Positions 4,126 through 59,919 of a DNA stretch of 64,000 nt are shown here, in pieces. Source of the DNA: Owenia fusiformis (lineage: Eukaryota > Annelida > Polychaeta > Sabellida > Oweniidae); the NCBI GenBank assembly GCA_903813345.2, contig CAIIXF020000005.1, forward strand, positions 27,343,375 through 27,407,374, read 5' to 3'. The notes below the pieces were generated by a model, which worked only from the letters and a program-made list of their open reading frames with translations, was not told the DNA's origin and searched no databases. Each line of letters opens with the position of its first letter. The stretch's first letter is position 1. The translations under genes and the position numbers were made by a program.

Positions 4126-4205
4126 ATGGCAAATTTTCATTGGAAAAACCTGGTAATCATTTTACTAGTTCTAGTCTGCCCTAACGAAATAACAGCAACT
4201 TGGTG
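4126..4205 (+). CDS. wnt2: Wnt2 exon 1 (signal peptide)
   Basis: ATG at 4126-4128; encodes MANFHWKN, the hydrophobic core and ITATW, ending TG|GTAAGT in phase 2. The first base of exon 2 completes the second Trp. It lies 2.7 kb before exon 2 and is found by the signal peptide plus the phase match. Confidence 0.85.
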
Positions 4206-7200
4206 GTAAGTGTTGGAACCCTTTTATTTATTTAAAACAATTTGGTAGTTTATACCAATACGTATCACTCAGCGTGTGGTCATCATCTCCTGATCGGTTT
4301 GTTCTATCTGACAGTTGGATTCCATATGTACAAATATATCGATAACAAATCACTATCTTCTCGGTTAAAAATGATTTCCTTCTGTCTAAACCTTTACATT
4401 GCATTATTGGAAACGTCTTTCACAGTAATGAAGTTCTGTTGAATTAAAAATGTGACGATGGTCTTCGTACCACCGCTATTTATTTGGATTTTATGGTGAG
4501 TATTTGATGAAAATTTGTTTTTATAATTACAAATGTGTTTTAAGTTGTAAGTAACGTTCGGAGTCAATGAGAGACACCATTCTTGATTTTTGATAATTTT
4601 TCAAGATGGTAGAATATCTACAAAAAATAATATTTTATTATAGTACATGATATGATTTAATGCCACTCACTTATTCATCATTTTGGAATTCTGCAAGATT
4701 ACACAATTCACACTCACAAGTGCAATAAATTCATTTCTGAAAATAGATGGATTACGTTAGTTTGTAAATATCTTAAAAAATCTTAAAACAATGGTTCGAG
4801 TGTACAGGGATAGTTGATTTGTTCTGAAGGAACGTTAAGTATTTATTTTAGCGTTGAGATGAGCTTAGAAACGGTATTTTGGACAGACTCGACTATCTCG
4901 AGTCCTTATACCAATCTATGTTTAGATATTTTGTGCTATTTACGTCTCATGAAGATGTACGGGTATACCCTCAAAATGGTTTATATTGTGTTTTTATTTA
5001 AATACGAGATTTATGTCTCACTTTTGATCTACTTTTACGTTGTAGTGACATATTTTGGGGGTTGATTGATGGGGGTTAAAAACAAAGTAAATGGGTTGTT
5101 TATGGGAAATCGAATCGTAAACGTGTTTTCTTGATGAATTGAAATAAGAAAGGAAATTGAATGATTTTACCGATGATATGATAACGACAATCAACTCGGT
5201 TGATGATATAACTGCAACAATCAACTTAACTGATGAAAACTAATGGCTTGATTAATGAAAGGGGAATTAAGTTGATGAATATTAATGAAATTAAATGATT
5301 TAATGCGTCAAAATCCCCCAATGCAAGATCTGTTAGTTGAAAAGAGATAGAAGTTTGCAACTGCAGTGAGTAAACTAATCAACAGTGTCAGAGTTGCCAA
5401 ATGTTGTTAATTAGAATTCTTCAGGTACTCCGACGTATTATATCAGCCCTCGATATGAAGATTCAAACTGTTGCGATTTACGTGTTTCCCATGAGATAAA
5501 CAAATGATGAAATCAGATTACAGAGAATAATGTAAAATAAATACTATGATGCGGGGCAATGTTATTCTTTTGAGAAAATTGGCAAAGTCAATATTTGACC
5601 GGGGTGAAACATACTTGAATGTGGTTTATTGCAGTTGGCGGGGTAACCAGAAGATAGTGATACTCTCAATTAGAATCATTTAACGATTAATTGGAATGTT
5701 TATTTTAATGTCTAGCTAAACGTTTTGTTTAGTTCCCTGTTTGGTACGTTTATATCAACCTGATCTGCTGGTGAACTGGTACGAAATGAACCCTTTATAT
5801 AGTACTCATAATATAACTGTTATGTAATGAAATGTTTGGATATGGTGTTTATCACGAGCGATGTCCCAGCAAATTGATTTTTTGAGCCGTCAAGCCCCAG
5901 TCACATTTGCTCTACGGCGGCCGACAACAATCACGATATAGAAAATCTACATCCTAATGCTTATCCCTATTTTGATATCCCCAATATTCAACTCTTTCTA
6001 AAGTTCCTGGTTTATCTCATACCCAAACAACGTATGATAGAAATAAAGAACAGCCTCTGAGGAAGTCAGAGCACATTAGAAAACACAATGACAATCGGGA
6101 GAAAATATGATGATGAAACAATAAGATGTATTTCTAGGTTACGGTAATTTCCACAGATCCATACAGGGATGCTTCATAATTTCCCTTAGTAAAGATTATC
6201 ATTTTTACATCATTTATATGCAGATCTCCAAAAGAGAATTAGATATTGATTTCTTGGATATCTAGACGACTCATAAGTTGAACCTCCCAAAGAAAACTCA
6301 ACTCGGAGACACCTCATCCTGAATACAACTCATCCCTAAGACACTCATCCCAAGACAACTCATGCCTAAGACAACTCATCCCAAGACAACTCATGCCTAA
6401 GACAACTCATCCCAAGCCAACTCATGCCTAAGACAATTCATCCCAAGCCAACTCATACCTAAGACAATTCATCCCAAGCCAACTCATACCTAAGACAACT
6501 CATCTCTAAGGCAACGTACCCCTCAGACAACTCATCATAAGACAACTTGTCACTAAGAAACTCATCCCAAGGTAACACATCCCAAGACAACTCATCCATA
6601 AGACAACTCAAGCCTAGAGACAACTCATCCCAAGATCACGCAGTCCGTATACTGAGACCCGTGTACTTTCTCCTGTGAAACACAAATGAAAGGCAATAAA
6701 AACACACCTATAAAGAACAAACCCATACTTCATAACGATTGACGTCATCGGGACCAATGTCATCCGATTTCTCCGGATTGACGCAAGACACGGGGCATGG
6801 TCTTGAGATCATGAACTGACGTTGAAAAACAGAAAATGTGATGAGTAAAATTTTTAAATTGCGTGTATTTTCAGGTTTATAAGTCAGCTCCCGCTGCACG
6901 CGGTAGGCACACAGATGATCTGTGATAACGTCCCAGGTCTGGTGGGCCGTCAAAAGAGACTTTGTCGGGCCCATCTTGACGTCATGGTCAGCCTCGCAGA
7001 TGGCGCTAAAGTCGGTGTGAACGAATGTCAATTCCAGTTCAAAGCGCAACGTTGGAACTGCAGTACTATAGACAGAGACGCATCTGTCTTTGGAAAAGTT
7101 ATGCTAAAAGGTATTACATTAGAATCCTTAAGAATTTAAAATCAACATTCCCAAATTAATCACTTTGTCGTTTAAAAAATAATCAAAATCTTCCCATGTC

Positions 7201-10200
7201 TCTTGTTGTTAGGTGCCTTTGGACTAGGCTGGCTTACAACAATATCATTTTGATTTGAGTGATATTTGTAGAAAATGGTATCACTAAGTCAAATTCAAAT
7301 ATATTACTTCATTTAATGCGATAACTTAACAAAACAAGCAACTCCAAATAATGAAATAATAAAGAATTCTATGATTAATGCATGTTCATAAATGTAATTG
7401 CGAAACTTCAAAAGACTATAGGAGTTGGGGAAAAAACCATTAACACAAATCGTCATCAAAATAGTCGACGATAATTTGTGAGGAACGCTCGGTATCAGAT
7501 CGTGTCAGCGATTCACACTTTGAAGCTTATTGTAGAGTGACTTTTAACTCGAAGGCTCTTGAGAATATCCAAGGAGCTCAACATCCCGTCAAGGGCCTAT
7601 TAATCCATTCAAAATACTACTTGATAGATTTCTTGATTTGAGATTAAAGGCTATGATATCCAGTTATAGGCTTATATCCAATGTCCCCGGTTGACTCTGT
7701 CCTCCCTTATCGAAGCTCAGTGTATATTTGAGGCAGTTGACCGGGGAAAATGGCTTGATCTTATGTGGTAAGAACAAAATGGAATTTATTTTTCAAATTA
7801 TGATAACATATGTGAAGGATATTAGAGGGGGTTCAATGCTAATGAAACGTGAAATGAAAGTGAAGAACTGGCTGACATGTACAGGCCTAGTAATACTTAT
7901 GTTTAAACTCAATTTTAGTATTAAGTCCGTGCTGAATCTGAAAAGGGAGCCAAATTAAATCTCCCTCGTGCTAAAATTCCTACCATTTAATTCATCGTTC
8001 TGAGGCTTTGGTTTAACAGTTCCGATCTGCTGTAAAAGCAAACATCGCGCATTCAGTATAATCACGCTGGAGGACAAAGGAATGAAATTGAAACCTTTCT
8101 TGTGGAAATTACACTATAAGTTTTGCTATGTTTGATGTTGATCCGTAGGTGGTTTTATTTCAATCCCACCACACACGGCTCCAATAGAGATCGGGACTAA
8201 CTTGTCACTACCTATCAATACGAACATAACAGTCACCCGTTTCATTATCCGATTACGCTTCGCGACAAAAATGTTTTCAAACCCCAAAAACACTATTTAG
8301 GTGTCTGCATTCTCGTCAGTCAAAAATAATGAGATCATATTTTGAACCAATTTTGATTTCGGATTCACAATTCCTCTTCCTAGTTTTACGTTGGTCCTCG
8401 TGTATTTTTGCTTGCTAATTGCTGCCTTTCATTTCTTTGCCATGTTAAAGTCGTTTTCACATGACTTGGCTTTTCGAATCTTAGGCATTTGTTCAAAGTC
8501 TATCTTAGCTTTGACTCCTATTTCATTTTCTCTTGACCAGTCCCTCTCCCCTAGCTTATACTCTGAAAATTCTCAAAATGCGATATTGTTCTCTTCATTT
8601 TTTACTTAATTTTTAGTATTTACCAATATCCCTAAATATTTGCCAGTTTATAATATTACATACAAGTATTACTTTCTTATAACTTATGAACTTTGAGAGT
8701 AGCTCCAAGTTTCTAAAAAGTTATTTTTAAATCTCTGAGAACTCTGTAGTTTCCACCTCATCAGTTTTGATTGCCGACAGGAATCGTTGACAGATCGTAT
8801 TAGTTGCATAGTACATTTATTTTTAGTTTATCTTAAGAGTGCAAGATTATGTGTATGATATGTTTGCATAATCAATACAATCAGATAAAATAATATTCTA
8901 TGAGTAAATCTAAAGAAAATTCGAAATAACGTTTAGTTTTTTTGTTATTTAGTGGTAAGTTAAAATACAACAGTTGATACAATACTAATGCTTCAAACTA
9001 TTTTCTTTAAATGAATACTTGACAATATATATTTTTTTAAAAGTAATTTTGTATACAAAATGCCTTAGAAATTTGCCCTACCCCATTTTGGTATATTTTC
9101 AATATCTTGTATTAAAACGTTCTCATTATAGCCATCATACCAAAATTAGGACATCCTAAATATAAAAGTGTACTATTTAACAATTGGCTTGGACGTCAAG
9201 AAAGATTGGTGAACCTCACTCAGAATTCAGTGCATATAATGTGAAATACTTGTACAATAACGTCATTTCGAAGGACAATATAGTGAAATATTGGACCGAG
9301 GGCTGTAAACTAGCACTAAAACCCCTAGAACTGGCCCGGCAAGGTGGTAATAATATAATATCATAAATGTACAATAGATGAAAAACTTGTATGAGATCAT
9401 CTAATTTTTGTTTTCAAATTTTAATATTTCAGTCGGCAGTCGGGAGGCGGCCTTTGTATACTCAATCTCTTCAGCTGGGGTTGTTCATGCCATTACGAGG
9501 GCCTGCAGTAAAGGAGATCTTCAAAATTGTGCTTGTGACCCAACAAAAACGGGACAATCGAAAGACAGAAAGGGAGAATTTAAGTGGGGTGGGTGTAGTG
9601 ACAATGTAAGATATGGTGCAGATTTTTCTAGAATGTTTGTGGATGCTCGGGAAAAACGTATAAGAGACGCCCGGGCGCTTATGAACCTACACAATAATAG
9701 AGCAGGCAGAAGGGTAAGTGAGAGATGCCCCGAGTTCACAATATATTCGAATTATTCAGACTTGCATATTGCTGTCAATCTATAAAAATACCCTTGGATT
9801 GAGGGTGTATTTGTTGAACCGTCCTCGTACGGACACGTTTTTGAAAAACAAACCTTTTGAGAATCCTGTAATGGCATCAACTTTCCTGATTTCATATGAG
9901 AAACTCCCAGGAAAAGCCATGCATAATGAAAAAAACAAGAACTTATTTCCAGACAAACTTAAATTCTTCTGTAACATCAAAGTCCAAGATCAATATCAAA
10001 TCTTTTTATTTTTCAGGCAGTAAAGAAATTTATGAAATTAGAATGCAAGTGCCACGGGGTGAGCGGTAGTTGCACTATACGAACGTGTTGGCTTGCAATG
10101 CAAACCTTCAGAAAGGTGGGCGATTATTTGAAAGTGAAATATAACGGAGCCACCCAGGTTGGGATTAACCAAGATGGAAATGGACTCATTGTTGCAAATA

Positions 10201-10896
10201 GAAATCATAAGAAACCGACTAGGTCGGACCTTGTATATTTTGAGCAGTCTCCGGATTACTGCGTTGAAGACCCCGATACAGGTAAATATTATTACGGCGG
10301 TCTTGTTTTAAAGACGCATATGCATATAGTATATTGTTTAAAATATGCCCATTTTTAGTATTTGTATTATCGTTTGATTCTCGTTTGATTCATTTTGAAA
10401 GTGTTTCAATCCTAGGAGATCGTATATTATATACAGACAATGTTGCGATCATAAAATGAAAAACCTTGTGTACCTAATGTATAAATAATAAATTATTATA
10501 AATTGTCTCGAATTAAAACGTATTTCACACCTAAATCAAACTACGTGTCATATTAACAAGGATTCACGTGACGTGAAAATAGACCCCCGTTTAATTCATC
10601 ATAACAAACAAACCTATTTTTCAGGCTCATTGGGGACTGCTGGTAGGGAGTGTAACCGTACCTCTATGGGGACAGACGGTTGTGACATTATGTGCTGTGG
10701 GCGTGGTTATGACACTACAACCGTCAAAAAAGTACGGAAATGTGAATGTAAATTTCACTGGTGTTGCTATGTTAAATGTAAGGAGTGTATTGAAATGATG
10801 GATGTACATACATGTAAAGGACCCAATCCCACTGCTCCTCCTAAAATAAAGAGATTACGAAGAAAACCGGTGTATAAATTGGACTCCAAACTGTAA
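4126..10896 (+). CDS. wnt2: Wnt2 secreted signalling ligand
   Basis: Secreted, lipid-modified glycoprotein that binds Frizzled/LRP receptors. Five exons (4126-4205, 6875-7110, 9433-9713, 10017-10281, 10625-10896) join to 377 aa. Residues 1-24 are a signal peptide ([13 protein letters not shown] core). The mature part carries all 24 conserved Wnt cysteines. CHGVSGSC at 211-218 places the Porcupine-acylated serine at S215; the C-terminal finger [11 protein letters not shown] is 329-339; an N-glycosylation site is N298-R-T. Assignment to the Wnt2 subfamily rests on [37 protein letters not shown] and [16 protein letters not shown], all close to vertebrate WNT2/WNT2B. Five coding exons and the Trp-Trp at the first junction also match human WNT2. 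The tail after the last cysteine is longer and more basic (KIKRLRRK) than in vertebrates. ST7 lies downstream in convergent orientation. Confidence 0.96.
5890..6000. repeat. Dispersed short repeat, copy 1
   Basis: The stretch around 'GAAAATCTACATCCTAATGC' and the following ATTTCTCTC-like segment recurs near 30720-30860 and 45732-45899. The last copy has short inverted ends (GCCTCAGTC/GACTGAGGC), so this is probably a small MITE family. Confidence 0.4.
6321..6632 (+). repeat. Minisatellite, ~15/30-bp unit
   Basis: Tandem units of the form GACAACTCATCCCAA alternating with GACAACTCATGCCTAA give a 15-bp unit and a 30-bp higher period, roughly 20 units, 240 bp upstream of Wnt2 exon 2. Confidence 0.85.
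6875..7110 (+). CDS. wnt2: Wnt2 exon 2
   Basis: Acceptor GTATTTTCAG at 6865-6874; enters with one base that completes Trp27. It encodes [10 protein letters not shown] and [10 protein letters not shown] and ends AAA G|GTATTA in phase 1. Contains four of the Wnt cysteines. Confidence 0.93.
7111..9432 (+). other. wnt2: Wnt2 intron 2
   Basis: 2.3 kb of AT-rich DNA from GTATTA to AATATTTCAG. I see no repeat array and no credible open frame. Confidence 0.75.
9433..9713 (+). CDS. wnt2: Wnt2 exon 3
   Basis: Begins with two bases of a split Val codon, then [17 protein letters not shown]. Ends AGA AGG|GTAAGT in phase 0 after [12 protein letters not shown]. Four Wnt cysteines. Confidence 0.95.
10017..10281 (+). 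CDS. wnt2: Wnt2 exon 4 (acylation site)
   Basis: Acceptor TTTTTCAG; encodes [19 protein letters not shown] with the palmitoleoylated Ser215, and ends ACA G|GTAAAT in phase 1. Five Wnt cysteines. The introns on either side (303 and 343 bp) hold nothing else visible. Confidence 0.95.
10625..10896 (+). CDS. wnt2: Wnt2 exon 5 (C-terminal cysteine-rich domain)
   Basis: Acceptor ATTTTTCAG; the split Gly codon restores [12 protein letters not shown]. It contains [14 protein letters not shown] and HTCKGP, eleven cysteines, and stops at TAA 10894-10896. Confidence 0.95.
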
Positions 10897-11127
10897 ATAT
10901 GATGTAACATGATTTAATGACTAACATACAGTTCCTGTTCACGATGGTGCATTTCGTGTCTCTAGTGTCATATACAGATCCGTTTTGGGCCTGTCATATC
11001 AGTCTAATGACATTGTGTGTCAACTGCGATGTAAAGTTGTAAACGTTTATGTGTCAGAAATATGGACTCAACAGAAGGATGATAATTGCTACATTTAAAT
11101 ATCAAACCACGTGACCACTAGCCGACA
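10897..11127 (+). other. wnt2: Wnt2 3' flank
   Basis: No AATAAA close to the stop. The first plain AATAAA I see is at 11905-11910, beyond the tandem repeat, so the 3' UTR may be long. Confidence 0.3.
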
Positions 11128-13938: not shown

Positions 13939-14116
13939 TATATAAATTGTAAATCTACCTTGAGGCTCAGTGCCTGGTAGATTAGGTGGTGCAGATGAAG
14001 CTCTCTTTTTTAAGAAGCTACTCAAACCATTGGCAAGAGTATATGAAGCATAAATCATTGTGGAAAAGAAAATATATCGGTCGATTGTTTTTACGTATTA
14101 TTCTCCAAAGCACGTA

Positions 14117-16920: not shown

Positions 16921-16944
16921 ACAAGCATTATTATATGTAGAATA

Positions 16945-26385: not shown

Positions 26386-26391
26386 TTTATT
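26386..26391 (-). promoter_or_regulatory. st7: Candidate ST7 polyadenylation signal
   Basis: The only AATAAA on the minus strand within the first 360 nt after the ST7 stop codon. Inferred from motif and distance. Confidence 0.4.
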
Positions 26392-26747: not shown

Positions 26748-26924
26748 TTACAATAAATCTCTGATCTCACCAGACGACTCATACGGATGACTTTCTATAT
26801 GGTCATTTCCTCTGACATCACCACGGTTATTGATCACATATTTAGCATGTGTTCCTTCCACTTTGATGACTGGTTGAAGAGGGTCAGCATGGTAGATTTG
26901 AATCTTTGGGGCTGGGCTGCTAAA
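26748..26924 (-). CDS. st7: ST7 exon 14 (terminal exon)
   Basis: Acceptor TTATATTGCAG, phase 0; encodes [15 protein letters not shown].. to GEIRDLL and TAA at 26750-26748. The frame and splice site are good, but this hydrophilic tail does not resemble vertebrate ST7 C-termini, which themselves differ by isoform. An intermediate exon in the 4-kb intron cannot be excluded. Confidence 0.75.
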   Translation of the reverse strand, partial: FSSPAPKIQIYHADPLQPVIKVEGTHAKYVINNRGDVRGNDHIESHPYESSGEIRDLL

Positions 26925-32900: not shown

Positions 32901-35900
32901 CTATGGCTTCACTGTCACCCCGTTTGAGGATATGTTCAGGTGGAAGGATCAGACTTTTCATCTCTAATAGATACTGCAATTAACCAATGTGTAACAGTTA
33001 ATGGAAGATATATAAAGTTTAAAATTCTAGCCACATGAGAGTTAAAATCTATTTACTTTGGACAAATGAGGATAAAACTCTAATTTTGGCATATAAGAGT
33101 GAAACATTATGAACTCATCATATGGGTAATATAAGGGTTAAACTGTACTACTTAATATTACCTGTGGCAATGGCCTTAAGGAATGTCAAAAGATGTCCAA
33201 AACATCAATTTAATTGTATATTAGTACTTTAACATGTAAAAATTCCTTCAAATATCTCTACATTGAGCTCATGAGAGTTAAATGTTACTTACTTTGGGAA
33301 CATGAGGGTTAAACTCTACAGCTCTGTGTATTGCCTCATGAGAGTTAAATGTTACTTACTTTGGGAACATGAGGGTTAAACTCTACAGCTCTGTGTATTG
33401 CCTCAACTGCATTCATTTCTGCTGTACTAAGGCCTCTTTTTGAAGCTATATCAGGGGAGAATTTGTCAGCAACCTGTCTTGCTTTAAGCAGTGCTGCCGT
33501 GTAGCATATTGTGGCTGATTTTGGGAGACTGATATCTGCAAAAAGTTGATGTTCAAAACTTTATCTTATTTATAAAGCACGCATTGAATGATCACTAGGG
33601 CAGGGCATTTGTACTGAAAGGAGCATTTTCAGTACAAATTGTACTAGTTTTGTTTCAGTACAAATCTTATTATATTTATGTACTGAAAAATGCACTGAAT
33701 TTTTTAAATACATCTTTTTATACTAATTCAGGACTTTCAGGTAGATATTTTTGAATTTTTTTTCTCAAATATTCAAATTCTCCGCCATTTTTCAAAAAGT
33801 TGAAATTTTCTAATCATCAAATATTCAACCATACATTTCAAAAAAGATTATCTTTTTAACACCAATGCAAATATTGAACAAAGGACACACTATTTCAATA
33901 ACAAAATGCCATATCTAATGTGCCACTTCAATGTTTTAGCATATCAAAAACATCTTGCAACCTAAGTGACGTCATCATGTGGCAAAAACTTTTTGAAAAT
34001 GTTTTCAACTTCAACTTCAAAAATAAGTCTATAAATAAGACTACAATATAACCCAAAGTGGTTTAAACTTTATATGGGGCCTTTAAATTAATGTAATGTT
34101 ACCATCATATTTTCCCAGCACTGCTTGTACATCAGCATATGCCTGTAGTTCTAGTAAAGCCTCTATCAGGTTTTCGTGGATATTAAATAAGTTAAGACAT
34201 GGGAAGTCCTTCATCAGCTGTAACAAAAAGAAAAATTGAATTATTTTTATTAATGTTTAATCATATGTGCTACATGATATGTGCTCCAACACCTCAACAA
34301 GATCGTATAATGTATAATGAAGTCTTGCTCAACTTTCACAAGCATCTCCCTCGGATATACATTTAGTATATGATATATAATGTAGTTCATAAAAACTTTG
34401 AACATTGTTCTCTAAAAATGTTACTTGAATTTTGAATTTGGTATATGCTTCTGACCAACATCACCATAACAACCATAATGTCGATATTCTGAGGCTTTAT
34501 ACCATGAAAAGTGAAGGATATACTTGAATAACGTTAATCTAGAATTTGTAGCAATTTCATTCTTGGACAATCCAACCACAATATCTGTAGCATTTATATC
34601 TTTTCCGGAACAAAGATGGACTAGTAATAAGTGAAATTAATGATGTGACCTGTATTGTGAAAGATTCATACTGACTTCTGTTGTATTTGATCCACTTGCT
34701 TTAAAAATACATCACTAAGTATTGGCACTAAGAGAATTAATAAGAAATTTGAAAATCCATGAAAGATTCGAGAAATATCTCCCTCGTGGTGAACTTACAT
34801 CTCTAAACATCTTCACAGCTTCTCTAGTTTTGCCCAGTTTCCGGGCACACATGGCAAGTCTTCTCTTTACATACACCAGGATGTTACTGTCTCTCCCTAC
34901 AAAACAAGTCATTTTGAGCCATGAACCAATGAGCAATGTCAATGAAATGCTACAGTGCAGAGTTTTTCTCAATTGCCTGGTACGCAAGCCTTCTCTTTAC
35001 ACATCAGAATGTTACTATCTCTTCTAACAAAAGACAAGGCATTTATACCAAGCAAAGGACTAAATTTAAGTATCTGTTCTTCAATTACAATTCTTCTTTT
35101 AAATAATTCATTGCCTTGTTTCCTGCAAGCCACGTCTCTAAAAGGCTATGCAATTGGATATGATTTCACTTTACATCATTTCTTATGTACTTTAAAGAAT
35201 AATTGATTGTCTTAGTTATTGCAAAATGTCACCACCTGTAATTTTTTAAACACATTAACCACCATCCACAAAAAGTTTGAAGATTCCACCACTTCTGGTG
35301 GTGATATTATAACATATTAGAATGTTAATTCATATCTTAAGCCACATGTTTTTCTCAAAAGATGTCAGGCTAGATGTACAGTATGTATTATGAAAACTTA
35401 ATATATTCATCATTTGAATCGAGTGATTAATGATTCTAAATTGAATTCCATATAATTACAAGCGTGTGTTTCCAGCCTATCTATTCTAATGCTTGCTTAT
35501 TTTGCTCTTTTCAACTTTATTTTGCATTTCAAATCACAGTCAACTTACGGTGTATGATTTCCTGTGTTGAGTTATTGTGCTGGGTCTGTTGACTTTTTCT
35601 GTAGTTGGTTTCTGCACTTTTGTAAGCCTGTTTTAGAAGCTTCTCAGCCTTCAAGTGAAAATGTATTTACAGTATGTAATAAAGTAAAACATGTGAAGAG
35701 TGGACACCTATGGAGCCACAAAAATGGGTTCACTGTGATTTTATAAACAGAAGTCACCAGAGGAGTAATATGTGCTGAGAAGGGGTGTTCACTAGATTCA
35801 GGTGTTCACTAGAGAGAGATGTGTTCACTAAAACAGGTTTCACAATATTATTATCACAGAGTGTTGAGTTATTGTTGCTTCTATAAAATTTACAAAACTT

Positions 35901-38900: not shown

Positions 38901-41900
38901 AGCGGAGATCATTAGCTGAAGAAATATTTGACACATTTTTTTAGTTGACCAAGTTGAAGAGGTATTTAATCAAATTAAATGCTCCAAAGATGCAGATTCT
39001 ATTTACCTCAACTATGGACGGGCTTTCTTCTTCTGCTAATAGCACAAGGGCAGGAGCACATCTGAAATAATAAACATGAAATATAATATTACACAGTTCT
39101 TCTATACATTGTTATGAAGGTTTTATTTCAACAACATGTAGACAAGGCATTAACATGCAAAATGTCACCACTTCTGGTGGTGATTTATAAAAGTTGGGAG
39201 ACAATATGTGACCATTTATGGTAGTGACATTAAAATGTTAAAAGCACATTATACTAAAGTGTACACCAAAATAATTTTACACCAAAATATATCCTAATAA
39301 TTCAAATGTACATACAGTAAAACCTGTTTAAGTGAGCACCTCTCTCTAGTGAACACCTGTCTCTAGTGGACATCCTTCCTCTGCATAAACTCTATTGATT
39401 TCTGAATTAATTGTCATTACTGTTGTGAACACCTATCTTCAGTGAACACACTTTTGTGGCTCAATAGGTGTTCACTATACACAGGTTTTACTGTATATGT
39501 ACTTTACTGAGGAATAACCATATCAAGTTCCCATGTGGTAAAATGTGACTTTTGGTAAAAGGCTTCTCTGAATAATGAGAGATACACTAAATCTAAATGG
39601 TATTGGAATGCTGAGAAAAAACGCAGAACTCAAGAAATTTTCACTCTCTCAATCTATCTACTTGGCATACAGGTGAAAGCAAAAAAGTAAGGTTTGAAGA
39701 TGAGGATTCTACTCCACATGTATGAAGAGGATAACAATTTCTGAAACCCAATATGTGAAACTTAATCTGTGAGACTCGATTTTCCAAAGTTTTCTGTGAG
39801 AATTATTTCCTCAGTTACATAATGAATTATCAGTGCAAAATATGAATTTTGATTTATGATGTTCTAGAAACATGTCCCAGATCCATTATGAAACCTCTGA
39901 TGAGAAGAGAAACTGAATTTTAGAAATGAGCAATAGCTTTATTAGTATGTGTACCATGGTACTCTGGAACAGTTGTTGAGTCTCCTAGGAAATTAAGCAA
40001 TTTCCTTCACTCAAATATGTCATTTTCAGTTCTACATTAGATTAATAGGATCAAGTCACAATGGCTCCGGGTGTCTGATATGTTTACGAAAGATTGGACT
40101 GAAGGAATAAGGAATAAAGCAAGCAAGGAATAAAGAATATCTAGCCATGAAATGCAGACAGCCTTCATAATTTATGTTATTTGATTAATTTGATCAATTA
40201 TGAAGTAAATCTGTTGAGAAATTCATAACTTTTGTTGGTTGTAAGAAAAGCAGTCCTTGTGATAAATGAATACAATATGTAATGAGCCTTATTACGTCTA
40301 CAAATTAATATTCCATATAAAGCATTATGGATAATGCTTTGGCGATCATGTTTTAAAAGCATAACTGATTCCAAAAACAGTTGAATTAGCTAAGAGAGAA
40401 GCAAATGGGCACGTGGTTAACGACATTATTAGTTCAGAGATGTTATAAAATGAAACATTTCACTCAAATTTAAGAGAGAAATCATGAGAAATGGGCATGA
40501 TCATATGAGCAGACGGACATTCACACAGACAATATGTGAAATTAATCAATGTTTCAGAGTGTTTGCTTTGATCAAATTGACTTCAGCTTTAAAATGAGAT
40601 GAACAAAAAATCAATATAGATGCCTTCAAGTATCATGCGGAAAACATAATTGGGAATTTGCTTAACTTTATTTTAATCTCGCTGGCTTAAAAAATCAATG
40701 AATCCAAACTCGGTGATCGGGCGGTCTTCGTACTTTGATGAGCTGGTTCTATATTTATTCAGTGTTATTACATCAGTCGGGTCAAGCTTCACCAGACAAT
40801 TCTGAGTTATTTGCAATTTAAATGTAATTCGCTTAGGTGACCAGACTTTCAAGGTTTCTTTAATAAACACAGTATTAAAAACAATGTACAAATGAAATAC
40901 CATTTGTTGAATAATCTCATTCATATTCTAGCAACACAAATAAGATAGACGATCAGAACACTGGGGATTTAATTAGATCTGTTTTGATGAATGCTTATTG
41001 AGAAAAACTGTAAATTGATAACACGAAAGAAGTTTCATTAATTGTCACATTATCTCTCGTTTCCATACATTTTACGACGTTCATTAGAGATTTAATCCAA
41101 AAATTTTCCGCTGCATCAGTAACAAAGTCACTGTAACCTCAGACAAAGTAATAAAGATCCAGGATTCTTGATTGAATTCAAAAAAGCTTCAGCCATAAGC
41201 CTTAGGGACTAAGGGAGCATCTCAAATATTAAAAGTAATTACATATGGGGTGAAAATGAAATTAAAATGTAGAATTTATAATCTGTAAAGAATGATTTAA
41301 TGTAACAGTTGGGCCAAAATAATGAATGCAGAACAGCAGGGGGAAAAATTGCAAAACTTAAGGATTAATTGAAAATAGGCACGGCAAGAGAAACAAGACC
41401 AAAGGATACTGAAAAAGTCAATTTTGGGTTGCTCCAAACCTCTGACTCTACCTATAAGCAAACAGATTCATGTGTAACTTACTCTGGGTTCTTCTCCAAG
41501 GCATCATGGGCAGCACGTATCCTTGCCTGAGGATTCCGCTCTCTCCACGCTACCTGCATTACTGAAATATTCAAACATAAAACTACAAGATGGTAGATAT
41601 GAGAGATTTATGTTATGCTTGTACTTAACTTGGCTATAAACACACGTTAAGTCTAATATTTTGTGTATTGAAGTTGAAATGTGACCAATCAGGCAACCTG
41701 AAATATTATTGTTTTTTGGAATGATTATTTGATTCATCACTACTTTTTAGGTCTTAAGGTTGACCCTATGAATGGAAAATAAAATGACCTACTTTCATAA
41801 TCAGGTTTGCCGTTGTCAGCTTCACATGTGAAGAATGTTTGGTGGTCTTGCGCTGACAGGTTCATATCATAATACGTCAGTGGCTCTTTATTGGTTGCCC

Positions 41901-43783
41901 AGGTAAAACGTAGATATTCTGACCCCCGAAATAAATTCAGGGGATTTCTCCATACTTTACATTCTGAAAAATAAAATTCAAAATATGTAATGACATTATT
42001 TCTCAGGAAAATATCTAAAATGGAGCTACAAAATAGAGTCAAACTGGTAATATAAGGATGCAACTGCTTATATGAGAGTGGAATAATTGGGAGACAAAAT
42101 AAGAGATTAACGTGGAAGGGTCACCTTATTTCAATGTTAGCCCAAACTGTAATTACATTTAAGATTTCATAATATAGCTAAAAAAAAGTCAGATAAAAAG
42201 TTGCTCCATTTAAATATTTGATGCATGCTAACAACCATATCAGTTTTTGCCCTCCCCTAAATATAATTAATAATGCTGCTGGTGGATGTGCACTGATATG
42301 ATGAGCTTTATTTAGTTGATATCAAATAATTATCCGTAATCATAAAAAGCACATGATTATGACTCTTATATCAATCAAATAGAGAAAAAAGTGGTTGGAT
42401 GTTTCCTATTTAATGAGCACTTACCAAAATAATAAATCCATCAGTATAAAATACAGTGTATATGGTAATTTATAAAACTGGGAGCATACTGACTTTGACT
42501 ATGACTCTTGTTATAACATAGCAGTGATTCATACATCTTCATCAAATATTCAACTCTAATTTTAAAGCTCTTTAGAGCTCTGCTCCTACAAATTAGGTTC
42601 AGTGTGACAGTGATCTCCAAAGCATTATAGAAAGTGGATCACCCACTTGACATAAAAATCCATTTGCATCAACTTAACATGTGGAAATCATGAATAATTT
42701 GCAATTATGATAAGAAGTTGATGAAATTTTGAACATTTTTGGGGCAACTTAGATAGTCTTGTGTCACTGGCCCCTGTACCTTTTACTCAGTTTCTTTGTT
42801 GTATAAGACTATTTGGCAAGTATGCGAATATTCTGAAATAATTTTTGCAATCATATCGCTCTTTCCCGTGCTGCCACTTAAGGCACATGTGGAAACAAAA
42901 GACATGATGTCTCATCAATATTATCTTACACAATGAACAAATTCTTTTGGGTAAAACTTATATCAGGACAATTTTTTTAATGTCAAATCTTACTCTATGC
43001 CTTGATAATTTTACCATAAAACACCTTTCTCTGGAATTTTTTGTATGACCACAATCTAGCTAATTTTTAGGATTAAAATCTTGCCCGCTTTTAAAAAGCA
43101 TGTACATGTACAAAAATGCAGCCCTAATAGACCCTGCCACCTTTTGGCAGGTCAAAGAAGTTATGATACATTGGCTAGATTGATGATGTCATTGGTTGTA
43201 TGTAGAAATTTGTCTTATCAAAAATAGGATAAAGTTAGGCCCATTGTATTAACTAATTGATAATTCTGAAAAGTACAACCTATGATATCACAAAGCTAAT
43301 ATATCATCATCCTCCTAAGCAGGTGTCCAGAATCCGTACCTCCTTCTTCCCCCTGCTATAACCAATTTGGAAGCGCCCGATTAAACTGAATCACGTGATC
43401 TAACTATGAGCAATGACTCATACATGATTTCTGTCGCAGTGTTGCGACAGCCAATCAGACTGTGAGTTCTTAATCGGGGAAATGCTAACTGCTTATCGCA
43501 GGGGGTAAAAAGAAAGAATATATTCTGGATTTTGAAGCCCTGTGATCGGAGGATGATATATCATAGCTTCTTTGATTTACCAAAATGTGGCAGGGTGTAT
43601 TGGAAACATATAATGGTAAAATAATCAAGGCACAGAGCAAAAAAGGTTTGGCTTGAATAATGCAGAATTGCCCAAAAAATTGATGTCCCAAAATAAGTTT
43701 TACCCAAAAGAATATGTTCATTGTGAAAGATAATATTGATGAGTTATATCTTTTGTTTCCCCATGTGTCCCAAGTGGCAACAA

Positions 43784-43816: not shown

Positions 43817-46800
43817 TAAATATTAAAGCAATCTTCTTTTTCTCACAATTTACAAAAAAATATCCAACCCAACTCATCTTTGCTATTAGTCTGTTATGTG
43901 CTAATACAACAACACTTGTTATATTAAGAGTTATTCAATGAACAATATACTGTTCTCATCTGAAATTACCACTTTCTAATTTGTGTCCATGACAACCGTA
44001 TATGCTCTTTCATAACATCATCTTATCACGTGCATTTTTAATCTCCACTGTCGAGAGCGTTAACATATATGCTGCATAATAAAACTTGAAGTAATATAAT
44101 ATAAAGCTCATACAAAATAACATATTTATATGGTACATACCATATTCTCTCGAATGAACGCACGTCGCACATTACACCCAAATTGAAATTTAAAAGAGTA
44201 AGATATTGATAGATTCCAATATTGCAGATAATCTTTTATTTGTTATCACAAATGTTTACATACTCCTGTATTTCCTTCTCTGCTTTAAATATAATCATAA
44301 ATCAATATCTTGTGTAAATCTAAACGAATGCATCAAACAGTTTGATGCATTAGTTTAGATTTTCCAATTTTCACGTTTATCAAAGAATCAAGTTAAGAAT
44401 CAAGAAATGACATACATGCCTTAACCTTCTGCACTCCGACTTATTTCAGCAAATATATCCCACGCATCTGACTTATTTTTCAAAAATGATATGCCTGGAC
44501 TAAATAATTAATATCTCAATAACTACTGAATGAATCTGGATAAAATTTTCACAAAGGGAAGATACACTAGCGTGGCTCATGAGAAAAATGTTCTCATGAA
44601 TTTTTTTCGTACATAAACACGACTGGGCTTGAATATACCATGAATTCTCCTCCAGAATCCGCCGTTTCGCCCCTCGGGAGATTCAACGTCTGGTCAGAAT
44701 CCAAAACTGAATTTGCAGAGATCGAATGTTCTTCTTTTCAGTTCAGAAAATATTCTAGTTTCTATTTTCGATGACCATTATCGGCTTCCAAGAGCCTAAA
44801 GAGCTCGAAATCGCAATCCATTTCCTCCACATTTTCGTTGTGATCGTATTTGGCCGTCATTTTGTACGATTTGTTCACTAAAAACGACTTAAACACTGTT
44901 GAATTGTTGAATTGAGAAATATTTTTCGAAACATCGCCATTTCTAGGTCAACAGGAAGTCACCTACTAAGGACTGAATAAATCGGGCAATCTAATTGGAT
45001 CATAAGAACGGCGGGAAAAAGTAAAGTTTTCAAAAGTTAGATTTGTGTCGTCCGGATCCGCCGGTGGATTCTGGTGGTAGTTTTGAATGGGCGGACGCGG
45101 TCGCCGGTGGTCTGCTAAAGGTTAATACTGGACAAGAGTGTATTCTTGATACTGTAAAAGATGCCATCAAATCAATATAAGGATGATGGTACCAAGAGCA
45201 GTTAAACTTGAATCCCTCATAAATATGGAATTAAGAGAATTTGTTTCAGTATTTATTGAACAACCCTCATAAATACAGTAGCCCACCATGTATGCCTTGT
45301 CTAGCTACAAGCCCCTCTGCTCCCCCCAGTCCCAATACTTAAATAGTGGGAGGATCGGGGGGGGGGGGTCACAAGGACTTGTAGATAGACTATGATTGAC
45401 TTTAAATATATTTCCCAGTATATGATTTTCATAAAGAAATTCAAAAAATAAATAAATAAAAAAACATTGTTTTAACCTACCTGGTATAGAGTTCTGTTGT
45501 GTACTGTTAGATGAATTTGTTTCTATGGTAGCCTCCCCTGAGCTGCCAGTAAGAAGTGGGGATATATGGTTCAGAGACACCTGCTCTATGAAGGAGGTGC
45601 CATACTTTTTAAAATACCACCATTCAAATATCTGAAGAAACAAGAACAACACAGTTAAACATGTAAATGTGAAAACTATTCTAAAGTGAACACCTTGACA
45701 TGGACACTTATTTCAGCTGCATTCATTTTAAGCCTCAGTCTCATTTCCTCTACAATGGCTGTACAGTGGCCACAGCTTCACAAATTCCATTAGAAAATCT
45801 ACATCATTCTGCTTAACTCTGTTTTTTTGCAGAATATTTCTCTCAATTTTGAGAAGTACAGCCATCATACAGTTGCCGTAAGTCAAATGTGACTGAGGCA
45901 TTACACATGTTTTACAACATTTCAAAGGTTCAAATTTCATAAGCTGATGTTTAAGAAAAATGAATATCTGACAAAGAAAGAATTTTTAATATGGCAGCTA
46001 AATTCAAAATGGCCAAGGAGAGGGATGGTGATTTTATATGTAAACTTACGAGAATTAATCCCGAGATCAGTGAAGAGGTTCCTGTCAGTGCAACATAGAA
46101 CTTTGGAGTCAAATTGTTCAGGAACATAGTTGCTGAAATCACAAATAAAACAAATATTAACAAGGCATTAACATGAGAAAATGTCACAACCTGAAAATCG
46201 TTATCATGTGACAATTGTAATAAATGCTGTCATAGTAACTTTAAAGATATGATGGCATTGTGGGATCCACAGCCTTTACTATCCTTTTGGAATAGTTCTC
46301 TCAAAAGCGTTAGGTAAAGAGGGGCTCTGATAAATCAGAATGATATGATGGTGATATAATCGAAAGATATTTTGCATGTGTGAATATTGAAGGCAAGTAT
46401 TGGTTCCTCACTTTCCCTGAGCCTATTCCCTCATTGTAGTTTTCATTTGAGTCTCGGGTTCACCAAATAACTATCTAATTAATAATATGTTTCTGAAACA
46501 TGAGGCACTGCAGTGCTCTCTTCAGGATTTTTCTATGTGGAGTATTTTTATTAGTGCAATATTTTAGGATTTTCGAGATTTTCTTGCAGGATATTCACTT
46601 TATCTAATGCAGTAGGTTCAATGTGTTTCATGCCTCAATGCTTTATGAAGTAAAAGCATTTTCCAGATAATTTAATAATAAGAGAGTGTTGGGGCAACCT
46701 GCAGAAGGAATAATCAATCAATTAGCACCTACATTTAGTCCCTTATTACGAATATCATAAAAGCTAAAAATAATATGATGAGATTGAAAGATATCTGTTT

Positions 46801-58800: not shown

Positions 58801-59919
58801 TCAAGGTCACTCAAGGTCACTGAATACAGTCTAAATGTGAAACCATGCAACCAAAACGAAATCGTAATTATTTATTACCAACATATCTGTTTTCGGTTTC
58901 TTCACCCTCCTTGGTGTCTGAGAAGGCGATTCAATTGTCATAAGACGATGATAAACTTTCGAGTTGAAATCTCGATCTCAATATGGCTGCTGTTATTTAT
59001 GGTAATTTCGTTTTTTTCGCTTCACCTAGAGTTTTACTTTTACACAATCATTACCCAGAATGCATCTACACATGGGGAAAAAAATTGTTTCCAGAAAAAT
59101 TCTTATACTTCTTCAATTATCAAGCGTTTGACGTGTGTAAGGTAGGATTAAATACATTATCGATGAAGAGCATATTCTAATACACAATTTGTGTGATTTT
59201 GGTTGCCTAAACAGGCCAGGAAAGCATTTCCCTCGATTTACAACCGGGAAGTGTGTACGACCCTAGTATGCAAGAAAATAACAAAAAATAAATATCCAAA
59301 TTATCAAAAAATAATGACAAATAAAGCATACGATGGTCGGATTTATATGACTACATCGCGATGTGCATCGATGTTTACAATTGAAATTTGCCGATGCATC
59401 GATGTACTATTATGGCACATCGTGACAACACTAGTTCTGACCCGACTCGATGTAAGTAGTTGTTTGTGACCTGGCCCTAGCAAACATACTCATTATTATT
59501 TACCTGTGGGCCAAGGAGGATTGGCTCCCAGAATGCAACACCGATATTCTGCAAAACAATCACCTAGCGATAGCTTTGTTGGAGAGTATCGGGTGATTCT
59601 CCATGCAGTCGTACAAATTATACAGACACGAAAAGCAAATGACGCATGCGTGGAGATTAAAGAATATCGAGTTGGAACCCTGGCTTCCAATCCTCCTTGC
59701 CTGTGGGCCTTGTTTTAGTTTCAGTTTCTCCAGTTTTCTGTTTTGGTAAGCAAGAAGGAAAACTAACTTACCCGAGGTAACGTTGTCGTTCAATTTCAAT
59801 GGTCCACGCAAGATGTACACAACAAAAACAACCAGCATAAACCACACAGCCCACAGATATGTCCAAGACCACGCAATCCAAGATTTTATCTTTTCAAACA
59901 TTCGGCCAACGAAAGCCAT
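26748..59919 (-). CDS. st7: ST7, suppressor of tumorigenicity 7
   Basis: Multi-pass membrane protein conserved across animals; human ST7 and ST7L are linked to extracellular-matrix and growth control, but no enzymatic role is established. Fourteen coding exons join in one frame of 578 aa (human about 585): 59919-59772, 46132-46050, 45631-45481, 41963-41793, 41561-41483, 39061-39007, 35648-35549, 34896-34799, 34217-34103, 33535-33360, 32973-32823, 31601-31509, 31046-30907, 26924-26748. Hydrophobic segments lie at about 13-38, 57-80 and 487-508. Signature stretches include [84 protein letters not shown]-like helices around 186-345, and [20 protein letters not shown]. Only the final exon departs from vertebrate ST7. 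Introns total over 31 kb and are loaded with MITEs and minisatellites. A second first exon may exist at 51558-51549. Confidence 0.95.
26925..30906 (-). other. st7: ST7 intron 13 (duplications and hairpins)
   Basis: 4 kb intron. Segments of about 27190-28330 recur at about 29140-29970 in the same order. A 38-bp inverted pair bounds 28099-30285, a 60-bp inverted pair lies at about 28370-28430 / 28912-28970, and a hairpin lies at 28616-28724. Open frames here (for example 29302-29685) are fragments of the repeat. A dispersed repeat copy is near 30720-30860. Confidence 0.65.
28616..28724. repeat. ~110-bp hairpin (CTGCAATTGCCTGGCAAG arms)
   Basis: Eighteen perfectly paired bases at the ends and continued pairing (CTGATTG..CCACTG with CAGTG..CAATCAG) give about 36 paired bases. 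Probably a tiny MITE. Confidence 0.7.
30907..31046 (-). CDS. st7: ST7 exon 13 (third membrane segment)
   Basis: Acceptor ATATTTTCAG; encodes [38 protein letters not shown] and GHIAKT; ends ACA|GTAAGT in phase 0. Confidence 0.95.
31509..31601 (-). CDS. st7: ST7 exon 12
   Basis: Acceptor TATACTTCCAG; the split Thr codon then [18 protein letters not shown]; ends TTACCA G|GTAAGG in phase 1. Confidence 0.93.
32107..32248. mobile_element. Short hairpin MITE, 41-bp arms
   Basis: Inverted arms of 41 bp with two mismatches (core GCAGGGCTACTAGTTTCGAA), separated by about 60 bp, with TATA at both ends. Lies in ST7 intron 11. Confidence 0.75.
32294..32584 (+). mobile_element. TTAA MITE family A, copy 2
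   Basis: Same ends and interior as 23102-23357; sits in ST7 intron 11. Confidence 0.82.
32632..32800. repeat. Minisatellite (ATGAAATAATATGAAATGGC type)
   Basis: Degenerate ~20-bp units, all variations on AAATGGCATGAAATAATATG. It starts about 20 bp past the exon 11 donor inside intron 11. Confidence 0.75.
32823..32973 (-). CDS. st7: ST7 exon 11
   Basis: Acceptor TTAATTGCAG; encodes [20 protein letters not shown] and [18 protein letters not shown]; ends GGA A|GTATGT in phase 1. Confidence 0.95.
33268..33401. repeat. Exact 67-bp tandem duplication across ST7 exon 10 donor
   Basis: 33268-33334 and 33335-33401 are identical over 67 bp. The unit contains the exon 10 end ([15 protein letters not shown] codons), its GTAAGT donor and about 25 bp of intron, so a second, intact copy of the donor lies 67 bp into intron 10. 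Confidence 0.93.
33360..33535 (-). CDS. st7: ST7 exon 10
   Basis: Acceptor TTTTTGCAG; encodes [40 protein letters not shown] and NPHVPK; ends CCCAAA|GTAAGT in phase 0. Its last ~42 bp plus donor are duplicated exactly just downstream (see the 67-bp repeat). Confidence 0.95.
34103..34217 (-). CDS. st7: ST7 exon 9
   Basis: Acceptor TTGTTACAG; encodes [20 protein letters not shown] and [15 protein letters not shown]; ends GAT G|GTAACA in phase 1. Confidence 0.95.
34799..34896 (-). CDS. st7: ST7 exon 8
   Basis: Acceptor TTTTGTAG; encodes [20 protein letters not shown] and [10 protein letters not shown]; ends GAT|GTAAGT in phase 0. Confidence 0.95.
35549..35648 (-). CDS. st7: ST7 exon 7
   Basis: Begins [11 protein letters not shown] after a weak acceptor (TTTTCACTTGAAG) and ends ATACAC C|GTAAGT in phase 1. 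Part of the helical TPR-like region. Confidence 0.88.
35669..35856 (-). mobile_element. GTGTTCACTAGAG-type MITE, diverged copy at ST7 exon 7
   Basis: Related to 39310-39500 in reverse orientation: shared GGAGCCACAAAAATG, GGTGTTCACTAGA and AAAACAGGTTTCAC blocks. One end stops about 20 bp from the exon 7 acceptor. Confidence 0.65.
35982..36629 (+). pseudogene. Zinc-finger-like gene fragment inside the element
   Basis: Exon 35982-35995 (MADQ + 2 bases, then GTAAGT) joins exon 36408-36630 in frame: Q, then [22 protein letters not shown], and so on. The C-x2-C..HH spacing looks like the start of a Cys2His2-type finger. After about residue 62 the frame runs into the 31-bp repeat and stops at 36628-36630. 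It reads like the beginning of a captured or degenerate gene on the strand opposite ST7. The product is unknown. Confidence 0.45.
36570..37220. repeat. Minisatellite, ~31-bp unit, ~20 copies
   Basis: Units of CTACATCTGCCATGTTAACA + ACCTCTGA. The first units overlap the end of the zinc-finger-like frame, so the array appears to have grown out of that exon. Confidence 0.9.
38371..38560. repeat. Minisatellite, 17-bp unit (GTGGAACACCTATGTAA)
   Basis: About eleven near-identical 17-bp units inside ST7 intron 6. Confidence 0.88.
38690..38838. repeat. Minisatellite, 15-bp unit (CTGTACATGTTTTAC)
   Basis: About ten units. The sequence resembles the ...GTTTTACTGTA end of the neighbouring MITE family, so the array may derive from a MITE terminus. 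Confidence 0.85.
39007..39061 (-). CDS. st7: ST7 exon 6
   Basis: 55-bp exon after TTATTTCAG; encodes [18 protein letters not shown]; ends GAG|GTAAAT in phase 0. Confidence 0.9.
39310..39500. mobile_element. MITE with ACAGTAAAACCTG ends
   Basis: Ends ACAGTAAAACCTG and CAGGTTTTACTGT are inverted copies with TA flanks; the interior is rich in AGTGAACACC. In ST7 intron 5. Confidence 0.8.
41483..41561 (-). CDS. st7: ST7 exon 5
   Basis: Acceptor ATATTTCAG; completes Ile then [20 protein letters not shown]; ends CCA GA|GTAAGT in phase 2. Confidence 0.93.
41793..41963 (-). CDS. st7: ST7 exon 4
   Basis: Acceptor TATTTTTCAG; encodes [14 protein letters not shown] and [19 protein letters not shown], the most conserved stretch of ST7; ends GAA A|GTAGGT in phase 1. 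Confidence 0.96.
42862..43793. repeat. ~930-bp imperfect palindrome
   Basis: Left arm pieces (GTGGAAACAAAAGA, CATCAATATTATCTT, CAATGAACA, TTTTGGGTAAAACTT, CCTTGATAATTTTACCAT, ACCCTGCCACCTTTTGG, CAGAATCC..CCCCCTGC) recur inverted and in mirror order to 43793. Arms are 300-500 bp with indels. The left boundary CTCTTTCCC matches GGGAAAGAG at the right. Confidence 0.82.
43784..43817 (+). repeat. (GA)n microsatellite
   Basis: An uninterrupted run of about 15 GA units at the right end of the palindrome. Confidence 0.95.
44421..45125 (+). mobile_element. TTAA family B element, copy 1 (~705 bp)
   Basis: Bounded by TTAACCTT and AAGGTTAA; interior closely matches 57656-58356, including CTCCTCCAGAATCCGCCG and CGATGACC.TTATCGGCTTCC. 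Near its right end are GC-rich CCGCCGG segments. No transposase frame is seen. Confidence 0.85.
45299..45390. mobile_element. G-run MITE, copy 1
   Basis: Inverted ends GTCTAGCTACAAG / CTTGTAGATAGAC, with a G13-14 tract inside. Copy 2 is at 54969-55107. Confidence 0.75.
45481..45631 (-). CDS. st7: ST7 exon 3
   Basis: Acceptor TTTCTTCAG; begins [17 protein letters not shown], then a Ser/Asn/Thr-rich linker; ends CCA G|GTAGGT in phase 1. The linker (NSSNSTQQN) is the variable, Asn/Ser-rich region of ST7 proteins. Confidence 0.95.
45732..45899. mobile_element. Small MITE, GCCTCAGTC ends
   Basis: 168 bp with inverted ends GCCTCAGTC / GACTGAGGC and an internal inverted ATGGCTGTAC / GTACAGCCAT pair. 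Relatives are near 5890-6000 and 30720-30860. Confidence 0.65.
46050..46132 (-). CDS. st7: ST7 exon 2
   Basis: Acceptor GATTTCAG; completes Ala then [20 protein letters not shown]; ends ATTCTC|GTAAGT in phase 0. Second hydrophobic segment. Confidence 0.95.
46827..46930. repeat. Tandem repeat, ~42-bp unit
   Basis: Two full and one partial copy of AGCTCATAATTAGTATCAAT + GACATCACTTTCATCTACAC. Confidence 0.8.
49113..49386 (-). mobile_element. TTAA MITE family A, copy 3
   Basis: Reverse orientation relative to 23102-23357: begins TTAACCTCTTGAATCCCAGG and ends CAAGAGGTTAA. Lies in ST7 intron 1. Confidence 0.82.
51549..51558 (-). CDS. st7: ST7 candidate alternative first exon
   Basis: On the minus strand TTCACCATGTTGGATT|GTAAGT gives a start codon and a strong donor ten bases later, ending in phase 1, the phase exon 2 requires. 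Spliced to exon 2 it reads [14 protein letters not shown]. The ~170 bp upstream are more GC-rich than the rest of the intron, as expected for a 5' UTR or promoter. As I recall, vertebrate ST7 also has an isoform whose short alternative N-terminus joins just before MFLNTLTPK. Confidence 0.5.
53320..54062. repeat. Foldback element, with a second inverted pair inside
   Basis: Outer arms: ACAGTCTGTTCAAAGCAACC..TTGTGCAATAATATAT at the left recurs inverted as ATATTATTACACAATAAT..GGTTCAACTGGTCGCTTTGA at the right. Inside, TTTATCCTATGCCAAGTAGAG / CTCTACTTGGTATAGGATAAA form another inverted pair (about 53467-53711). Confidence 0.75.
54969..55107. mobile_element. G-run MITE, copy 2
   Basis: GAGCTACAAGCCCCTGTGAC ... 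CACAAGGACTTATAGCTAGAC, with four separate G tracts between. Confidence 0.72.
57365..58500. repeat. Second copy of the foldback, split by a TTAA element
   Basis: Left arm (GATCATTGTGCAATAATATATGG) and right arm (CCATATATTATTGCACAATGG) are inverted and match the outer arms at 53320-54062. The family B element 57656-58356 sits between them. Confidence 0.7.
57656..58356 (+). mobile_element. TTAA family B element, copy 2 (~701 bp)
   Basis: TTAACCTTTA..TAAAGGTTAA; aligned along its whole length with 44421-45125, same orientation. Close to the right end GGCGGACGAGTCCGCCGGCA contains a short GC palindrome. Confidence 0.85.
59772..59919 (-). CDS. st7: ST7 exon 1
   Basis: Start ATG 59919-59917. Encodes [14 protein letters not shown] and the first membrane segment ([19 protein letters not shown]), then LKLNDNVTS; ends TCG G|GTAAGT in phase 1. 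Confidence 0.93.

What the first reader, a model, noticed from the sequence alone, without database searches (positions are those of the whole stretch)
4126..59919. Ancient convergent Wnt2-ST7 microsynteny
Seen: a complete Wnt2 on the plus strand and a complete ST7 on the minus strand, adjacent and tail to tail, with no gene recognised in the 15.8 kb between them. Known: human 7q31 has ST7 and WNT2 adjacent and convergent, and the 1p13 paralogues ST7L and WNT2B are also neighbours. Inference: the pair predates the vertebrate genome duplications and has been held together, possibly by shared regulatory DNA in the intergenic region or in ST7 introns.
Basis: partly seen in the sequence, partly recalled or inferred. 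Interest (0 to 1): 0.75.

Follow-up and report, generated by a model that had tools for sequence, protein, structure and literature searches.

The report
Ancient Wnt2–ST7 gene neighbours
In this invertebrate genome the signalling gene Wnt2 and the gene ST7 sit side by side with their tails facing, as their counterparts do in humans, so the pair is probably older than the split between vertebrates and most invertebrates and may be held together by shared control DNA.

Summary
Wnt2 (+, 5 exons, 377 aa, 4126-10896) and ST7 (-, 13 exons from 59919, Pfam ST7 969.5 bits) are intact, adjacent and convergent. ST7's last coding exon is unproven, so the gap is 15.9 or about 20 kb. No gene was recognised in the gap (33 of 33 open stretches below Pfam cut-off).

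The Wnt branches beside human WNT2+WNT2B (97/99; nine of twelve human references recalled). ST7 is single-copy. Six of six markers from the mammalian WNT2/WNT2B neighbourhoods have their best match on the same chromosome, C5, but 1.3-20 Mb away. Of two published Wnt-neighbour pairs, Fbxl14-Wnt5 is kept and Atxn10-Wnt7 is not. Descent from before the protostome-deuterostome split is strongly supported.

Why the pair was kept is inferred. I favour a regulatory block (Wnt2 target, ST7 bystander): another gene ends 0.9 kb before Wnt2, and in humans WNT2's TAD border lies on the side away from ST7 (PMC8643507 passages). Chance retention is not excluded. A known kind of finding; my paper searches listed nothing on this pair in an invertebrate.

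The parts
4126..4205 (+). Wnt2 exon 1 (signal peptide, ATG)
6875..7110 (+). Wnt2 exon 2
9433..9713 (+). Wnt2 exon 3
10017..10281 (+). Wnt2 exon 4 (CHGVSGSC region)
10625..10896 (+). Wnt2 exon 5 with stop codon
10897..26747 (.). spacer between the two 3' ends (15,851 b if exon 14 of ST7 is right; to 30873 if not); about 2.6 kb are tandem arrays and one dispersed repeat
26748..26924 (-). candidate ST7 exon 14 (58 codons and stop), unproven
30907..31046 (-). ST7 exon 13 (read-through would stop at 30874)
31509..31601 (-). ST7 exon 12
32823..32973 (-). ST7 exon 11
33360..33535 (-). ST7 exon 10
34103..34217 (-). ST7 exon 9
34799..34896 (-). ST7 exon 8
35549..35648 (-). ST7 exon 7
39007..39061 (-). 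ST7 exon 6
41483..41561 (-). ST7 exon 5
41793..41963 (-). ST7 exon 4
45481..45631 (-). ST7 exon 3
46050..46132 (-). ST7 exon 2
59772..59919 (-). ST7 exon 1 with ATG; intron 1 is 13.6 kb
896..3209 (+). gene ending 0.9 kb before the Wnt2 ATG: BTB plus six-TM potassium channel, closer to Kv1/Kv3 than to Kv4 (exon joins not modelled); context, not part of the pair

Best explanation
The two genes are the single-copy co-orthologues of the vertebrate pairs WNT2-ST7 and WNT2B-ST7L and were already convergent neighbours in the protostome-deuterostome ancestor (strongly supported: about 0.93). They stayed together while the rest of the block was scattered over the chromosome, most likely because the pair is a small genomic regulatory block: Wnt2 is the developmentally regulated target, ST7 a bystander, and some elements that drive Wnt2 lie beyond its 3' end, in the spacer or in introns of ST7, so a break between them would cut Wnt2 off from its control DNA (inferred: about 0.55).
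For: Orthology: tree support 97/99 for the window Wnt with WNT2+WNT2B, 64-66% identity against at most 57.5% to any other row; ST7 single and nearly full-length. Common origin: CAPZA, CTTNBP2-type, Kv4 and FOXP matches, Wnt16 and the best caveolin matches are on C5, which is 8.5% of the assembly. Selective retention: these lie 1.3 Mb (CAPZA), 8.8 (best caveolin), 9.2, 11.4, 14.2 and 20 Mb off (positions; arithmetic except FOXP), yet ST7 stayed next door. Same kind of partner: Fbxl14, the published neighbour of Wnt5, is 12 kb from Wnt5 here. Layout: a channel gene ends 0.9 kb before the Wnt2 ATG, so the free non-coding DNA next to Wnt2 lies on the ST7 side and in Wnt2's introns. Human: a TAD border inside ASZ1 separates WNT2 from CFTR, on the side away from ST7 (PMC8643507 passages; gene positions, PMC5649647).
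Against: No regulatory element has been shown in the spacer or in ST7 introns; no second invertebrate could be compared. The spacer holds a dispersed repeat of about 880 b and several tandem arrays, so parts of it tolerate insertion. One retained pair in one genome does not by itself exceed what slow shuffling could leave; Atxn10, also published as a Wnt regulatory-block partner, lies 24.7 Mb from Wnt7 here. PMC8643507 does not mention ST7, and that ST7 shares WNT2's TAD in humans is my inference.
Confidence: 0.55

Rival explanations
1. Ancestral pair kept by chance: the two genes were neighbours in the ancestor and no break happened to fall in the gap in this lineage; nothing holds them.
For: One genome only. 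Six of six markers are still on one chromosome, so large exchanges between chromosomes have been few here. Other old Wnt neighbours are also still close: Wnt1-Wnt9 and Wnt6-Wnt10 on C7.
Against: Order within C5 is heavily shuffled: CAPZA is far from ST7, CTTNBP2 from Wnt2, Atxn10 from Wnt7 and Wnt5 from Wnt7. The families are also listed together on both vertebrate copies (PMC3603989, PMC7041234, PMC12649552 passages).
Confidence: 0.33
2. The pair is kept for co-expression or for transcription reasons (shared chromatin state, convergent 3' ends, antisense control), not for enhancers inside the bystander.
For: The genes are convergent here, and in human the WNT2 3'UTR faces ST7 (SNP positions in PMC5649647).
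Against: The coding ends are 16-20 kb apart, so overlap would need long 3' ends; this is not excluded, and the polyA-like hexamers found on both strands are expected often in AT-rich DNA. PMC8851819 links co-expression to gene-dense blocks (section 8); this 64-kb window has three recognised genes, and the genome's average density was not measured. No expression data.
Confidence: 0.09
3. The pair was assembled independently in this lineage.
For: None found; outgroups could not be examined.
Against: Random placement on the same chromosome gives 0.0016 for lying within 35 kb, before asking for the same orientation; the wider neighbourhood is shared at chromosome level.
Confidence: 0.03

Closest known systems
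Mammalian 7q31 WNT2-ST7 and 1p13 WNT2B-ST7L neighbourhoods
   Same: Same two gene families, listed as neighbours; WNT2 3'UTR faces ST7 in human (PMC5649647); cattle list CFTR-ASZ1-WNT2-ST7-CAPZA2-MET-CAV1-CAV2-TES, with unnamed loci between some (PMC3603989).
   Different: Here CAPZA, the CTTNBP2-type gene, caveolins and Kv4 are far off on the same chromosome; the recognised genes on either side are a Kv1/Kv3-like channel and a SAC3/GANP-family gene.
Wnt5-Fbxl14 and Wnt7-Atxn10 ancient microsyntenies (Irimia 2012, as cited in PMC8851819, section 8 read)
   Same: A Wnt gene with an unrelated neighbour kept across bilaterians; for Wnt7-Atxn10 the explanation given there is enhancers in bystander introns.
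   Different: Another Wnt subfamily and bystander. Wnt2 occurs in the main text of PMC8851819 only in a reference title and ST7 not at all (listing); neither occurs in PMC9750109. Whether Irimia's list holds the pair is unknown: that paper is not held.
Amphioxus Wnt2-Wnt16 cluster (PMC6060547 passages)
   Same: Wnt2 and Wnt16 share chromosome C5 here; they form a named cluster in amphioxus.
   Different: They are about 20 Mb apart here. ST7 and CAPZA do not occur in that paper's main text.

Membership tests
Wnt2 subfamily | complete Wnt domain | tested here: met
   PF00110 425.7 bits, 2-305/305
Wnt2 subfamily | groups with WNT2/WNT2B against the other subfamilies | tested here: met
   support 97/99. 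WNT2 and WNT2B letters recalled; WNT5A, WNT7A, WNT3 typed from PDB alignments; no WNT8 or WntA reference in the tree; exon matches of own Wnts run into introns in places, stops removed in 4 of 11
ST7 family | full-length ST7 domain | tested here: met
   969.5 bits, 1-506/533; the last 27 profile positions are not matched
ST7 family | single copy, as expected before the ST7/ST7L duplication | tested here: met
   11 of 11 matches lie in this one gene; no ST7 tree was made
Ancient bilaterian microsyntenic pair | same neighbours in a deuterostome and a protostome lineage | tested here: met
   this genome against mammal and chicken gene lists; the protostome placing rests on the Wnt complement
Ancient bilaterian microsyntenic pair | kept in several phyla | not testable with these tools
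   by their descriptions the sequence collections hold viral, prokaryote, plasmid and metagenome records; no scan of them was made
Genomic regulatory block | developmental target beside an unrelated bystander | tested here: met
   Wnt ligand beside ST7; that ST7 is a bystander is assumed
Genomic regulatory block | target's enhancers in the bystander or spacer | not testable with these tools
   needs chromatin or reporter data
Genomic regulatory block | conserved non-coding elements in the block | not testable with these tools
   no related genome to align

The most novel reading that the evidence does not exclude
Wnt2-ST7 is a regulatory block common to bilaterians in which Wnt2's control DNA lies in ST7. 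In humans, deletions or breaks in ST7 at 7q31, long read as loss of a tumour suppressor (recalled), could then act through mis-regulated WNT2.
Probability: 0.2. Interest if true: 0.68.

Novelty: new member of a known kind. Interest (0 to 1): 0.42.

Why it matters
It would add a third Wnt subfamily to the small set of Wnt genes known to keep an unrelated neighbour across bilaterians, and it comes with internal comparisons: genes from the same ancestral neighbourhood that were scattered, one published Wnt pair that is kept and one that is not. That makes 'why was this pair kept?' directly testable in one animal, and it points to where WNT2 control elements might be sought in the human locus.

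Tried and rejected
Kv4 as the gene upstream of Wnt2: KCND3 is listed in the WNT2B block (PMC9902602), so the BTB-channel at 896-3209 could have been Kv4 and extended the synteny. Rejected: its channel exon is nearest to Kv1.3 (99.7 bits) and Kv3.1 (90.6) among solved chains, Kv4 only 60-62 bits, and the Kv4-specific domain is matched at C5:18.17 Mb.

CAPZA or CTTNBP2 as further neighbours: rejected, 1.3 and 14 Mb away.

RNA genes in the spacer: none at Rfam gathering scores in the window.

Naming the species: no COX1 match in the assembly. Size (498.3 Mb; matches beyond 20 Mb on each of C1-C12) is close to Owenia fusiformis (505.8 Mb, 12 chromosome-scale scaffolds; PMC9977687 passages), but this is no identification.

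Literature: WNT2 with ST7 and microsynteny or synteny, 0 papers; 'conserved microsynteny' with metazoan and Wnt2, 0. Other wordings: searches (5 of 5 rows seen; 15 of 15; 2 of 2), and 28, 40, 55, 63, in which only 20 of 61, 65, 62 and 38 rows were shown. No row seen was about the pair in an invertebrate. I saw listings, and passages of the papers cited (one whole section of PMC8851819); supplements could not be opened.

Full report
What is there. The window (G000:C5:27343375-27407374) carries a complete Wnt gene on the plus strand: five exons, 4126-4205, 6875-7110, 9433-9713, 10017-10281 and 10625-10896, GT-AG introns, 377 aa, Pfam wnt 425.7 bits. On the minus strand lies ST7: 13 exons from 59919 down to 30907, all donors GT and acceptors AG, 520 codons without a stop, Pfam ST7 969.5 bits over positions 1-506 of 533. 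The coding gap is 15,851 b or about 20.0 kb.

The gap. All 33 stop-free stretches of 60 aa or more listed in 10897-26747 were scanned against Pfam: none reached a cut-off (one, ten each, two; one stretch in a tandem array had two sub-threshold matches). The longest (175 aa) is a 42-bp tandem array; only 1 of 100 dinucleotide shuffles reached that length, and after masking repeats the longest is 117 aa. Listed repeats take 2,638 of 15,851 b, among them one dispersed element of about 880 b at 13062-13940: 41 copies elsewhere are listed at 96-99%, in a capped list, and it matches the opposite strand of its copies at 78-80%, so it folds back.

Which Wnt. The genome shows 42 Wnt exon matches that group into 12 genes. 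In a tree of 24 rows the window gene is sister to human WNT2+WNT2B with 97/99 support; identity to these is 65.7 and 64.1%, to every other row 57.5% or less. No own gene groups with WNT3; absence of Wnt3 is common to protostomes (PMC4244043 passage).

Which neighbourhood. Lists from the literature place WNT2 with ST7, CAPZA2, MET, CAV1/2, TES, CFTR and CORTBP2/CTTNBP2 (PMC1434773, PMC3603989 passages), and WNT2B with ST7L, CAPZA1, MOV10, CTTNBP2NL and KCND3 (goat, PMC9902602; chicken list without CTTNBP2NL and KCND3, PMC12649552; human positions, PMC7041234). SNP positions in PMC5649647 show the WNT2 3'UTR on the ST7 side. That ST7 and ST7L point towards WNT2 and WNT2B, and that WNT16, KCND2 and FOXP2 lie on human 7q31, is recalled. 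Six markers were sought: CAPZA, 3 of 3 matches on C5; CortBP2 domain (CTTNBP2 type), 3 of 3; Kv4 domain, 1 of 1, a short match of 33 bits; FOXP coiled coil, 2 of 2; Wnt16; caveolin, 6 of 14 matches including the two best (the other eight are on C3, C4, C9, C12 and C170). Except for Wnt16 these are family matches; orthology was not tested by trees. C5 is 8.5% of the assembly; five markers would all fall there by chance with 4.5e-6 (chosen as known neighbours, one of them multi-copy, so a rough figure). FOXP is the weakest: it lies about 0.15 Mb from Wnt5 here, and human FOXP1 shares chromosome 3 with WNT5A (recalled), so it may mark the Wnt5 neighbourhood instead. Eight of the twelve Wnt genes lie on other chromosomes, so C5 is no general magnet.

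Order within the chromosome is not kept. CAPZA is 1.3 Mb from ST7; CTTNBP2-type 14.2 Mb, Wnt16 19.9 Mb, Kv4 9.2 Mb and the best caveolin 8.8 Mb from Wnt2 (the nearest caveolin match is about 3.8 Mb off). I fetched 60 kb on each side, listed 34 stop-free stretches of 110 aa or more outside the window and scanned 13 of them in whole or part (nine, four). Before Wnt2 come a Kv1/Kv3-like channel ending 0.9 kb from the Wnt2 ATG, a sulfotransferase, and a receptor with GPS and 7tm_2 domains; beyond ST7 lies a gene with a SAC3/GANP domain. None of those recognised belongs to the vertebrate block; short-exon genes could have been missed. The conserved unit, as far as seen, is the pair alone.

Comparison with published Wnt pairs. 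PMC8851819 (section 8) describes fbxl14-wnt5 and atxn10-wnt7 as conserved pairs and accounts for wnt7-atxn10 by enhancers in the bystander's introns. Here Fbxl14 (67% identity to a recalled human sequence) lies 12 kb from the first matched Wnt5 exon, while the only Atxn10 match (39 bits) lies 24.7 Mb from Wnt7, in line with the looser linkage of ATXN10 reported in PMC9750109 (passage). Wnt2-ST7 thus behaves like the firmer of the two published pairs.

How it most likely works. Shown: adjacency and, strongly, ancestry. Inferred: retention by a regulatory block. Two facts lean that way. Here the upstream side of Wnt2 is closed by another gene at 0.9 kb, so room for control DNA lies in Wnt2's introns, the spacer and ST7. 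In humans a TAD border inside ASZ1 separates WNT2 from CFTR, and a deletion that removes it in one family goes with aberrant WNT2 expression (PMC8643507 abstract and passages); the border is on the side away from ST7 (positions), which leaves WNT2 in a domain that opens towards ST7 (the last clause is my inference; the paper does not mention ST7). Against: no element is shown, the spacer has taken up repeats, and a single genome cannot separate constraint from luck.

Novelty. The searches that I could make (four of the lists seen only in their first 20 rows) showed no paper about this pair in an invertebrate. The most likely earlier record, Irimia et al. 2012, is not held, and supplements were closed, so the pair may already stand in a genome-wide table. 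I rate it a new member of a known kind, of moderate interest.

Noticed in passing
window 896-3209 (+): A compact BTB plus six-TM potassium channel, nearest to Kv1/Kv3 among solved structures but diverged, ends 0.9 kb before Wnt2.
   Followed up: partly
window 13062-13940: Dispersed element of about 880 b; 41 copies elsewhere listed at 96-99% identity, matching the opposite strand at 78-80% (fold-back).
   Followed up: partly
window 60358-61208: Another dispersed element of about 850 b; 39 copies elsewhere listed at 97-99%, some 440 b upstream of the ST7 ATG.
   Followed up: no
window 27500-30100 (-): By eye, similar stretches recur in diverged form inside the ST7 3' region; polyA-like hexamers cluster near 28,010.
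   Followed up: no
G000 C7:6.55-6.58 Mb and C7:11.66-11.70 Mb: Wnt1-Wnt9 and Wnt6-Wnt10 remain as two close pairs 5 Mb apart: the old Wnt cluster seems to have been split in two.
   Followed up: partly
G000 C5:38.58-38.76 Mb: Fbxl14, Wnt5 and a FOXP coiled-coil match lie within about 0.18 Mb of each other.
   Followed up: no
G000 C5, C3, C4, C9, C12, C170: Fourteen caveolin matches, six on C5, suggest an expanded caveolin family.
   Followed up: no
L039 470-2338 (-): Open reverse transcriptase stretch of 623 codons (RVT_1) in the region beyond ST7.
   Followed up: no
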